A stretch of DNA of 34,125 nucleotides, from contig VAWZ01000103.1 of assembly GCA_005888365.1 (NCBI GenBank), positions 9,303 through 43,427 on the forward strand. The letters run 5' to 3'. The stretch is from Actinomycetota bacterium. Lineage in GTDB: Bacteria; Actinomycetota; Thermoleophilia; Gaiellales; Gaiellaceae. The translations under genes were made by a program, and so were the position numbers. The notes beneath the pieces are model-generated. The model did no database searches and was not told where the DNA came from. It worked only from the letters and a program-made list of their open reading frames with translations. This document shows positions 1-19,364 of this stretch, piece by piece; positions within the stretch are counted from its first letter, which is position 1; every line of letters begins with the position of its first letter.

Positions 1-316
1 GCACGGTCGCGGGAGCCGGGCTCGCAAGATAGGCGACGACCGCGTCGAGGTCGCCCGTCTTCCAACCTCCCCGCAGCCGTCCGTCCCCGTCTCGCCTCCC
101 GTCGACGTCGTCGACCACGACCAGCCGGGCGTCCCCGAACAGGCTTCCCGAGTTGCAGAGCCGGACCGCGACCTCTGCGGACGTGTCGAGCGCGCTGACG
201 ACCTCGATCGCCTCGGGGGCGAAGCGCACGCGGAGCCGGGAGACCGCGGTGGCGATCTTCGGACGATCGCTGCCGGTGAGGAGATAGACGGGCTCGAGCG
301 CCTGCTCCGTGGCCAT
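1..316 (-). CDS. holA: DNA polymerase III subunit delta, N-terminal part (runs off the left edge)
   Basis: My reverse-strand translation from ATG at 316 reads MATEQALEPVYLLTGSDRPKIATAVSRLRVRF..., a HolA-like N-terminus; comEA lies nearby. Confidence 0.7.
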   Translation of the reverse strand, partial: MATEQALEPVYLLTGSDRPKIATAVSRLRVRFAPEAIEVVSALDTSAEVAVRLCNSGSLFGDARLVVVDDVDGRRDGDGRLRGGWKTGDLDAVVAYLASPAPATV

Positions 317-17061: not shown

Positions 17062-18222
17062 GTGGACCTGCGGGACACACCCGAGGAAGCCGCGTTCCGC
17101 GAACGTCTCCGCAGCTGGCTCGAGGAGAACCTGCCCACGGAGCTCCAAGGTCACCGCGGAGGCGAAGCCCGCTTCGAAGGGGCTGCGCTGCGAGCTTGGA
17201 GCAGGGCGCTCTACGACGCTGGCTATGCCGGGTTGACCTGGCCGAAGGAGTACGGAGGCGGCGGCGCGCCGTACAGCTTCCAGGCCATCTGCCTGGAGGA
17301 GCTCGCCCGCGCCGAGGCGCCGGCGCACGTCGGCGTGATCGGGCTCGGGATGGCCGGGCCGACGATCATCGCGCACGGAACCGAAGAGCAGAAGTCGCGC
17401 TACCTGGCTCCGATCCTCTCGGCGGAGGAGATCTGGTGCCAGGGCTTCTCGGAGCCTGGCGCGGGCTCCGATCTCGCGGGAGTGCGCACGAGCGCGAGGC
17501 TCGACAACCACCGCTTCGTCGTGGACGGGCAGAAGCTCTGGTCTTCGTTCGCCCACATCGCGGACTGGTGCATCCTGCTCACGCGCAGCGATCCGAAGTC
17601 GACGCGTCATGCGGGCCTGACGTACCTGATCGTCGACATGCACTCGCCGGGCGTCGAGGTGCGTCCCCTGCGACAGCTGACCGGGGAGGCCGAGTTCAAC
17701 GAGATCTTCTTCACGGGCGTCGAAGTTCCGGTCGAGAACGTCGTCGGAGAGATCGGCGGCGGCTGGCAGGTGGCGATGACCACGTTGCTGCACGAGCGGG
17801 GCACTCTCGGCTTCGCTCTGCAGGCGGCGCTCGAAGTGCAGGTGCGCAAGGCCGTCGGGCTCGCGCGCGACAGGGGCGCCGATCCGATCCTCCGTGACCG
17901 CCTCGCCCGCGAGTGGATCGAGCTGCAGGCACTCCGGATGACGAACGTCCGCTCGCTCTCGAAGCTCATGAAGACGGGCGTTCCGGGGCCCGAGGGGTCG
18001 ATCGCCAAGCTCGTCTGGTCGGAGGCGAACCAGCGGGTGACGAAGCTCGGGCTCGAGCTGCTCGGCCCTGACGCCTCGCTCGCAGACGCGAACGCGCCCT
18101 ACGGCGGCTACTGGCAGTACCAGCAGCTCCGCAGCCGGGGCAACACGATCGAGGCGGGCACCTCCGAGATCCTCCGTTCGATCGTCGCCGAGCGGGTGCT
18201 CGGGCTCCCGAGGTCGAGGTAA
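17062..18222 (+). CDS. Acyl-CoA dehydrogenase
   Basis: GFSEPGAGSDLAGVRTSA, FVVDGQKLWSS, NTIEAGTSEILRSIVAERVLGLPR. Confidence 0.9.
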   Translation: MDLRDTPEEAAFRERLRSWLEENLPTELQGHRGGEARFEGAALRAWSRALYDAGYAGLTWPKEYGGGGAPYSFQAICLEELARAEAPAHVGVIGLGMAGPTIIAHGTEEQKSRYLAPILSAEEIWCQGFSEPGAGSDLAGVRTSARLDNHRFVVDGQKLWSSFAHIADWCILLTRSDPKSTRHAGLTYLIVDMHSPGVEVRPLRQLTGEAEFNEIFFTGVEVPVENVVGEIGGGWQVAMTTLLHERGTLGFALQAALEVQVRKAVGLARDRGADPILRDRLAREWIELQALRMTNVRSLSKLMKTGVPGPEGSIAKLVWSEANQRVTKLGLELLGPDASLADANAPYGGYWQYQQLRSRGNTIEAGTSEILRSIVAERVLGLPRSR

Positions 18223-18385
18223 GTGCCTCGTCCGGCAACAGTTAGGGCGATTCTGACTTCCGATCTGCGGCGCGCTGCGTCGTCCTCAGTCGCGCCAATA
18301 TCAGTTGATATTGACGCTCCCTGCGTCCTTGCATCGCTTGCATCTCGAATTCCAGAATCGCGAAACCGTCACCGGACGAGGCACT
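18222..18385. other. Intercistronic element bounded by 14-bp perfect inverted repeats
   Basis: AGTGCCTCGTCCGG (18222-18235) and CCGGACGAGGCACT (18372-18385); nested GCGATTCTG/CAGAATCGC and palindrome CAATATCA-gt-TGATATTG. Confidence 0.85.
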
Positions 18386-18386
18386 G

Positions 18387-19364
18387 ATGGACCTCACGTT
18401 CACCTTCGAGCAGGACGAGCTCCGCGAGCAGGCGCGCGCGTTCCTGGCCGGGCGTCCCGAGCCGGCGTGGGAGGAGCTGGCGGAACTCGGCTGGACCGGG
18501 GTCTCGATCGCCGAGGACGCGGGAGGTGCCGGCCTCTCGTTCGTCGAGGAGGCCGTCCTCTTCGAGGAGCTCGGCCGCGCCCTCTACCACGGGCCGTACT
18601 TCTCGACAGTCGCGCTCGCGCTGCCGGCGCTTCCGGCCGATCTCCGAGCCGAGGTAGCCGCCGGGGAGACGAGCTGGACGCTCGCGCTCGCCCCGCTCGT
18701 CTCGGACCTCGACACCGCCGACCGCATCGCGATCGTCGGCGGAGACGGGATCTACGAGCTCGAGGGAGCCGAGCGCGAGGTGCTCGCGACCACGGACGGC
18801 TCGCGTCCGCTCGGCGTCGTGCGCGGAGGCGAGCCCGGCCGATTGCTCGCACCGACGGGAGTCCTCGCGGAGATCCGTGCGCGCGCGCTCACGGCACTCG
18901 CGCTCGAGTCCTGCGGGGTCGCGGGGCGCGCCCTCGAGCTCGCGATCGAGCACGTCTCGACGCGAGAGCAGTTCGGGCGACCGATTGGCGCCTACCAGGC
19001 GGTCTCGCACCGGCTCGCGGATGCGTACACACAGCTCGAGCTCTCCCGCTCGCTCGCGCTCTGGGCGGCCTGGTGCGTCGCCGAGAGCGACGAGCAGGCG
19101 ACCGTTGCAGCCGCTGCGGCGAAGTCCTCGGCTGCCGAGACGGCGGTTGCGGTCTGCGAGACGGCGATCCAGGTCCACGGAGGAATCGGCTTCACCTGGG
19201 AGCACGAGCTGCACCGCCTGTACAAGCGAGCACTCGGGATCGAGAGCTTCATCGCGTCCGGGACCAGGCTCCGCGCCGACGTCGCCGGCGCGCTGCTCGA
19301 CGGAAAACGGAACATGGCGTCCGACGCGACGTCGGCGCCGGTCGCCGTAAGACAAGGAGGCTGA
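18387..19364 (+). CDS. Acyl-CoA dehydrogenase, short partner-type
   Basis: MDLTFTFEQDELREQARAFLAG; EHVSTREQFGRPIGAYQAVSHRLADAY; VCETAIQVHGGIGFTWEHELHRLYKRA. Confidence 0.88.
   Translation: MDLTFTFEQDELREQARAFLAGRPEPAWEELAELGWTGVSIAEDAGGAGLSFVEEAVLFEELGRALYHGPYFSTVALALPALPADLRAEVAAGETSWTLALAPLVSDLDTADRIAIVGGDGIYELEGAEREVLATTDGSRPLGVVRGGEPGRLLAPTGVLAEIRARALTALALESCGVAGRALELAIEHVSTREQFGRPIGAYQAVSHRLADAYTQLELSRSLALWAAWCVAESDEQATVAAAAAKSSAAETAVAVCETAIQVHGGIGFTWEHELHRLYKRALGIESFIASGTRLRADVAGALLDGKRNMASDATSAPVAVRQGG

What the first reader, a model, noticed from the sequence alone, without database searches (positions are those of the whole stretch)
18222..18385. 164-bp inverted-repeat element linking the stop of one ACAD to the start of the next
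Seen: perfect 14-bp inverted repeats begin at the last base of the upstream TAA and end one base before the downstream ATG. A nested 9-bp pair (GCGATTCTG/CAGAATCGC) and an AT-rich palindrome (CAATATCAGTTGATATTG) lie inside. The ribosome-binding site of the second ACAD (GGACGAGG) is in the closing stem. Inference: a ribosome terminating on ACAD 1 would open the stem and release it, coupling translation of two subunits that may form a heteromer. Alternative: a MITE inserted exactly between the genes.
Basis: partly seen in the sequence, partly recalled or inferred. Interest (0 to 1): 0.75.

Follow-up and report, generated by a model that had tools for sequence, protein, structure and literature searches.

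The report
Mobile foldback element between two genes
The 164-bp sequence between two acyl-CoA dehydrogenase genes is one copy of a previously uncatalogued family of small mobile foldback DNA elements in soil actinobacteria (Thermoleophilia) that land exactly between the stop codon of one gene and the start codon of the next, even in ribosomal-protein operons, and supply the stop codon and ribosome-binding site themselves.

Summary
The inverted-repeat anatomy is real (14/14-bp arms, nested pairs; fold z = -5). It is not a private device of the two ACADs. About 20 relatives lie in the same genome, 61/61 searched relatives give hits (strong in most of the family, weak in much of the order), and >116 core matches occur across Thermoleophilia MAGs. 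Empty orthologous sites in 13 relatives show a ~164-bp insertion into a short or overlapping stop-start junction. Copies share a conserved core, but their arms fall into classes. Class B and E arms match the ends of resident DDE (IS5-like) insertion sequences, several classes are TA-flanked, and copies nest in each other: a MITE-like family. The window's class A sits almost only between co-oriented genes (34:2; S10, atp, nuo operons), with the stop at one end and Shine-Dalgarno and start at the other. No transposase with class A ends was found. Pairing is conserved by strong covariation, but wobble pairs lie on the antisense strand, which folds ~22 kcal/mol better in 126/126 copies. So the element was not shaped as an mRNA hairpin for coupling. 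It nevertheless buries the ACAD2 ribosome-binding site (27 vs 5-16 kcal/mol), making dependence on ACAD1 translation a plausible side effect.

The parts
17062..18222 (+). ACAD 1 (acyl-CoA dehydrogenase, 386 aa, GTG start); last base of its TAA is the first base of the element
   Evidence: PF02771, PF02770, PF00441
18222..18385 (+). whole foldback element (class A, 164 bp, 57.9% G+C in a 68.7% G+C window)
   Evidence: empty in 13 orthologous loci
18222..18235 (+). left terminal arm AGTGCCTCGTCCGG; with the preceding TA it forms the stop codon TAA
18372..18385 (+). right terminal arm CCGGACGAGGCACT; carries Shine-Dalgarno-like GGACGAGG (18375-18382)
18247..18268 (+). left inner arm
   Evidence: 73% complementary to 18340-18361
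18340..18361 (+). right inner arm
18282..18293 (+). conserved core block 1 GTCCTCAGTCGC
   Evidence: invariant or nearly so in 48 class A copies; used for the scan
18292..18317 (+). core hairpin of variable sequence (GCGCCAATATCAGTTGATATTGACGC), kept by compensatory change between copies
18316..18330 (+). conserved core block 2 GCTCCCTGCGTCCTT; contains the site where nested copies insert in other genomes
18387..19364 (+). ACAD 2 (325 aa, ATG start)

Best explanation
The 164-bp sequence is a non-autonomous, MITE-like foldback element of a family found in Thermoleophilia. All copies share a strand-asymmetric core and about 160-bp length; the terminal arms belong to several classes, of which B and E match the ends of resident DDE (PF01609, IS5-like) insertion sequences. 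The window copy inserted, in this species or its recent ancestry, into a tight ACAD1-ACAD2 stop-start junction. Because class ends begin with G after a TA, insertion at the TA of a stop codon rebuilds a stop; the class A right arm carries a Shine-Dalgarno sequence just before the kept start codon, replacing the native one. Insertion in an operon is thereby tolerated. In the mRNA the arms pair and bury the ACAD2 ribosome-binding site, so ACAD2 translation probably depends on ribosomes ending ACAD1, but as a side effect. Shown by sequence: family, empty sites, stop/SD/start geometry, IS ends for classes B and E, covariation, strand asymmetry. Inferred: mobilisation of class A by an IS5-type transposase, tolerance as the reason for the location, and the coupling effect.
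For: Dispersed family: about 20 copies in the own genome at E < 1e-3, hits in 61/61 relatives, >116 exact core matches in Thermoleophilia/Actinomycetota MAGs. Empty sites: ACAD1-ACAD2 orthologues in 13 relatives lack it, with TGATG, TAGTG or short-spaced junctions; S10-operon junctions rplW|rplB, rplB|rpsS, rplV|rpsC are occupied in some relatives and empty (mostly TGATG/TAATG or short) in the rest. IS-type ends: class B arms flank a PF01609 transposase in G007 (903 bp) and class E arms match the ends of a multicopy FR_37 IS with CTAG/TTAA flanks. Recent mobility: 10 near-identical class D copies flanked by TA; about ten copies nested at one core site; tandem arrays. Location: class A 34 '++' vs 2 '--' (p = 2e-8), classes B-E 16:15 (Fisher 6e-5); start codon within -3..+6 of the right end in 29/37 class A vs 3/22 others; 23/34 co-oriented class A copies have both stop and start at the ends. 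Shine-Dalgarno in arms next to starts -8.4 vs -5.35 kcal/mol elsewhere (p = 0.0015). RBS opening 27 vs 5-16 kcal/mol in empty orthologues.
Against: No transposase with class A ends was found: an arm-pattern search of eight genomes gave only ~166-bp (two ~235-bp) arm pairs and unpaired hits. Class A copies differ strongly from each other, so recent hopping of this class is not shown. A precise target duplication at the window copy cannot be read (left TA, right TG). The strand asymmetry is not explained by ordinary DDE transposition.
Confidence: 0.8

Rival explanations
1. Dedicated translational coupler: the hairpin evolved to hide the ACAD2 ribosome-binding site until a ribosome ending at ACAD1's TAA opens the outer 14 bp.
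For: Geometry: stop at one foot, SD and start at the other; SD paired in the 14-bp stem; RBS opening 27 kcal/mol vs 5-16 without the element. Class A lies between genes of known complexes. The RNA-unfolding model of coupling is established (PMC12548453).
Against: Pairing is maintained on the antisense strand. Start-adjacent copies are no better paired in the mRNA than others. The in-operon orientation gives the more open RBS in 28/30 copies. Relatives do without it. Sister classes with the same core are not between genes in a fixed orientation.
Confidence: 0.1
2. The antisense strand is the working molecule: a structured RNA made from, or a folded single DNA strand of, the bottom strand, maintained by selection across all classes; the arms are secondary. 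This is compatible with the element also being MITE-like.
For: Arm mismatches are C.A on the + strand = wobble on the - strand in every class and gene orientation (505 vs 108 overall; A 113:26, B 71:12, C 33:3 after dropping shared positions). The - strand folds better in 126/126 copies. 35 of 41 pairs show compensatory changes; 92% of cells paired vs 73% shuffled and 35-44% slid.
Against: No promoter or transcript evidence; no Rfam match; no GNRA/UNCG loops on the - strand. Copies within a class share ancestry, so the counts overstate independent events; the structure was derived on the - strand.
Confidence: 0.35
3. Transcript-processing site (RNase III/E), as shown for Correia and ERIC elements inserted in operons.
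For: Long co-transcribed hairpin inside operons; precedent summarised in PMC3049150 and PMC10969869.
Against: Not testable here; the orientation in operons gives the less perfect duplex in mRNA.
Confidence: 0.2
4. REP-like element moved by a Y1 (RAYT) transposase as single-stranded DNA.
For: Strand-specific folding; Y1 transposases in 8 of 10 genomes tested.
Against: No copy flanks a Y1 gene: the loose matches are false on inspection. FR_37, with 194 core blocks, has no Y1 match. Two sister classes match DDE IS ends.
Confidence: 0.05

Closest known systems
RUP (Streptococcus pneumoniae, IS630-Spn1 MITE) and Correia/NEMIS elements
   Same: About 100-160 bp, TIRs, TA target, no gene, ends shared with an IS (for RUP; PMC2229807), highly base-paired
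   Different: Different host and target context; here one conserved core carries several unrelated end classes, and class A sits exactly at stop-start junctions with SD in the arm
ERIC/IRU (enterobacteria)
   Same: Intergenic foldback elements in operons, with orientation-dependent effects reported (PMC2229807)
   Different: Different host; no reported supply of stop plus SD in what I could read; sequences not compared directly
Translational coupling by RNA unfolding (review PMC12548453)
   Same: RBS of the second gene buried in a stem that upstream ribosomes would open
   Different: Here the stem came with a mobile insertion and the mRNA strand is the poorly paired one
IS5-like (DDE_Tnp_1) insertion sequences
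   Same: Ends match those of classes B and E; TA/CTAG/TTAA flanks
   Different: Window element has no transposase and class A ends were not found on any IS

Membership tests
MITE | under 500 bp, no transposase gene | tested here: met
   164 bp, class A 160-170 bp; 164 bp is too short for a transposase
MITE | terminal inverted repeats | tested here: met
   14/14 bp; arms in 126 copies
MITE | many dispersed copies, occupied/empty polymorphism | tested here: met
MITE | target site duplication | tested here: inconclusive
   TA flanks in class D and C (11/14 left, 10/11 right); class A 23/45 left, 17/42 right; window copy TA/TG
MITE | TIRs shared with an autonomous IS | tested here: inconclusive
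   met for classes B and E; not found for class A
MITE | AT-rich relative to genome | tested here: inconclusive
   window copy 57.9% vs 68.7% G+C of the window, class A mean 66.4%
RUP/Correia/ERIC | family sequence and host | not tested
   no direct comparison with their sequences; all core hits are in Thermoleophilia/Actinomycetota, no plasmid or phage match
REP/RAYT | association with a Y1 transposase gene | tested here: not met
IS630-type MITE (TA target) | IS630 transposase in the same genome | tested here: not met
   PF13358 absent from G000 and seven of the nine other genomes; MAG incompleteness is a caveat
Known Rfam RNA | match to a family at its gathering score | tested here: not met
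Translational coupler (mechanism) | second gene depends on translation of the first | not testable with these tools
   only energy estimates

The most novel reading that the evidence does not exclude
A modular mobile element whose conserved core works through a folded bottom strand (RNA or single-stranded DNA) and has repeatedly exchanged its ends to match different resident IS transposases, with one class specialised for stop-start junctions of essential operons.
Probability: 0.3. Interest if true: 0.85.

Novelty: new variant of a known kind. Interest (0 to 1): 0.6.

Why it matters
Mobile elements are expected to break operons. This family shows a way to enter ribosomal-protein, ATP-synthase and respiratory operons without obvious damage: the ends rebuild the stop codon and bring a ribosome-binding site. 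It changes how tightly the two genes are likely to be translationally linked, and gives a natural set of occupied and empty junctions in the same operon in which coupling could be measured. The antisense-strand wobble signature, shared by all classes, points to an unrecognised single-stranded stage and is directly testable.

Tried and rejected
Y1/RAYT link: loose core matches near Y1 genes were false. IS630 transposase as driver: absent from nearly all. Replication-strand bias in FR_37: GC skew flips near 0.75 and 3.0 Mb, but element strand does not follow it cleanly. IS with class A ends: none. RNA tetraloop signature on the folded strand: none. Viral contigs, plasmids and phages: no match. 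Rfam: one sub-threshold viral stem-loop match, E 0.08 and far below its cut-off, taken as chance. Intrinsic terminator: no T-run after the arm, and essential genes lie downstream (by eye). Literature: no report of such elements in Gaiellales/Thermoleophilia, or of a repeat giving both stop and RBS, in the open-access library; subscription journals were not covered.

Full report
Observation. The reported sequence is exactly as described. The 14-bp arms lie at 18222-18235 and 18372-18385, the first sharing its first base with the TAA of ACAD1 and the second ending one base before the ATG of ACAD2. Both genes are acyl-CoA dehydrogenases. The stretch folds far better than shuffled sequence (z = -4.98).

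It is a dispersed family. BLASTN in the own genome gives about 20 relatives at E < 1e-3 besides itself, and all 61 genomes of the genus, family and order give matches, strong in most of the family and weak in much of the order. A core pattern (GTCCTCRGTCGC-12..36-GCTCCCTGCGTCC) finds more than 116 stretches in a collection of 85,000 species, all in listed records titled Thermoleophilia, Solirubrobacterales, Ca. Gaiellasilicea or otherwise Actinobacteria/Actinomycetes/Actinomycetota (scan stopped at its limit), and none in viral contigs, plasmids or phages. One complete genome, FR_37, has 194 exact core blocks.

Anatomy of the family. Copies are tightly about 160-170 bp. The core is nearly invariant; the arms are very different between copies but stay complementary. 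By arm sequence they fall into classes: A (GTGCC..., the window copy), B (GAACTCG...), C (GGAGGGTTTGG...), D (GGGGCCTGTCCG...), E (AGGCTGTTGAA...). Covariation is strong: on the antisense strand 35 of 41 consensus pairs have compensatory changes, with 92% of cells paired against 73% for shuffled and 35-44% for slid partners.

It is mobile, MITE-like. (i) Empty sites: 13 relatives have the ACAD1-ACAD2 pair without the element, with junctions TGATG, TAGTG or a few bases. In the S10 operon, rplW|rplB, rplB|rpsS and rplV|rpsC are occupied in some relatives and empty in the others. (ii) Ten near-identical class D copies in one genome have TA on the left and mostly TA on the right; in FR_37 one subfamily has inserted about ten times into the core of other copies at the same site, and tandem arrays occur. 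(iii) Class B arms flank a DDE_Tnp_1 transposase gene in G007 (903 bp), and class E arms match the ends of a multicopy 1.44-kb IS in FR_37 with CTAG/TTAA flanks. For class A itself no IS was found, so its mobilisation by an IS5-type transposase is inferred.

Class A and stop-start junctions. Gene context was computed with a codon-usage caller trained here. Class A lies between two genes read in the same direction as the core in 34 copies against 2 in the opposite direction (p = 2e-8); classes B-E are 16:15. A start codon lies within -3..+6 of the right end in 29/37 class A copies with a forward gene on the right, against 3/22 in the other classes. In 23 of 34 both the stop and the start are at the ends. 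From their sequences I read neighbour pairs as rplW|rplB, rplB|rpsS, rplV|rpsC, rpsQ|rplN, rplN|rplX, rpsJ|rplC, rpmI|rplT, atpF|atpH, nuoM|nuoN, nuoL|nuoM, pdhA|pdhB and ccmE|ccmF (gene names by eye, not by profile search; a few of these copies have divergent arms outside the strict class A pattern). Arms next to starts bind the anti-Shine-Dalgarno better (-8.4 vs -5.35 kcal/mol, p = 0.0015). TA plus the leading G of the class ends rebuilds a TAG stop; in the window it reads TAA.

Which strand folds. Mismatches in the arms are overwhelmingly C.A on the core's + strand, which are wobble pairs on the - strand: 505 vs 108 overall, in all classes and in both gene orientations, and still 113:26, 71:12 and 33:3 after dropping positions with a common mismatch. 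The - strand is more stable in 126/126 copies (mean -106.6 vs -84.5 kcal/mol). In the window this strand is antisense to the ACAD mRNA. Copies share ancestry, so the p-values overstate independence; the agreement between classes with unrelated arms is the stronger argument. The cause is unknown: a bottom-strand RNA or a single-stranded DNA stage would both fit.

Translational coupling. In the mRNA the ACAD2 ribosome-binding site needs about 27 kcal/mol to open, against 5-16 in 13 orthologues without the element. A ribosome with TAA in its A site would be expected to cover much of the 14-bp stem (general knowledge of the ribosome footprint), so coupling is plausible. But the mRNA strand is the badly paired one; start-adjacent copies are not better paired than others (16.5% vs 13.2% outer-arm mismatches, computed from the counts); and the native orientation lowers the RBS opening energy compared with the flipped element in 28/30 cases (20.2 vs 27.6 kcal/mol). 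This fits tolerance of an insertion, not design of a lock.

Verdict. New variant of a known kind (MITE-like foldback element), of real interest for its stop-start location, its shared core with exchangeable ends, and its strand-specific pairing. The heteromer idea was not tested and is not needed.

Noticed in passing
L336:1049-1951 (G007): 903-bp IS5/IS427-like insertion sequence with class B arms at both ends: a likely partner of class B (its transposase frame may be partly degraded).
   Followed up: partly
L350-L360 (FR_37, JAOSKU010000001.1): Multicopy ~1.44-kb DDE insertion sequence with ends AGCAGGCTGCTGAAA and CTAG/TTAA flanks; the same ends appear on class E elements.
   Followed up: partly
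L323-L332 (FR_37): About ten copies nested inside other copies at the same core site GCTCCCTGCGTCC^TTGCC; tandem arrays of period 163-165 bp are in L315-L318.
   Followed up: partly
L065, L085, L092, L115, L122, L132: Short (~103 bp) relatives of the core, several from Solirubrobacterales or other Thermoleophilia MAGs, with unique arms in each copy, often at gene 3' ends.
   Followed up: no
L006, L012, L017, L058: Copies with extra small hairpins inserted within the core.
   Followed up: no
L309-L313 (G030); G024: Class A arms in one genome are all different yet paired at exactly 166 bp span, suggesting a strict length constraint; two G030 pairs span 235 bp.
   Followed up: no
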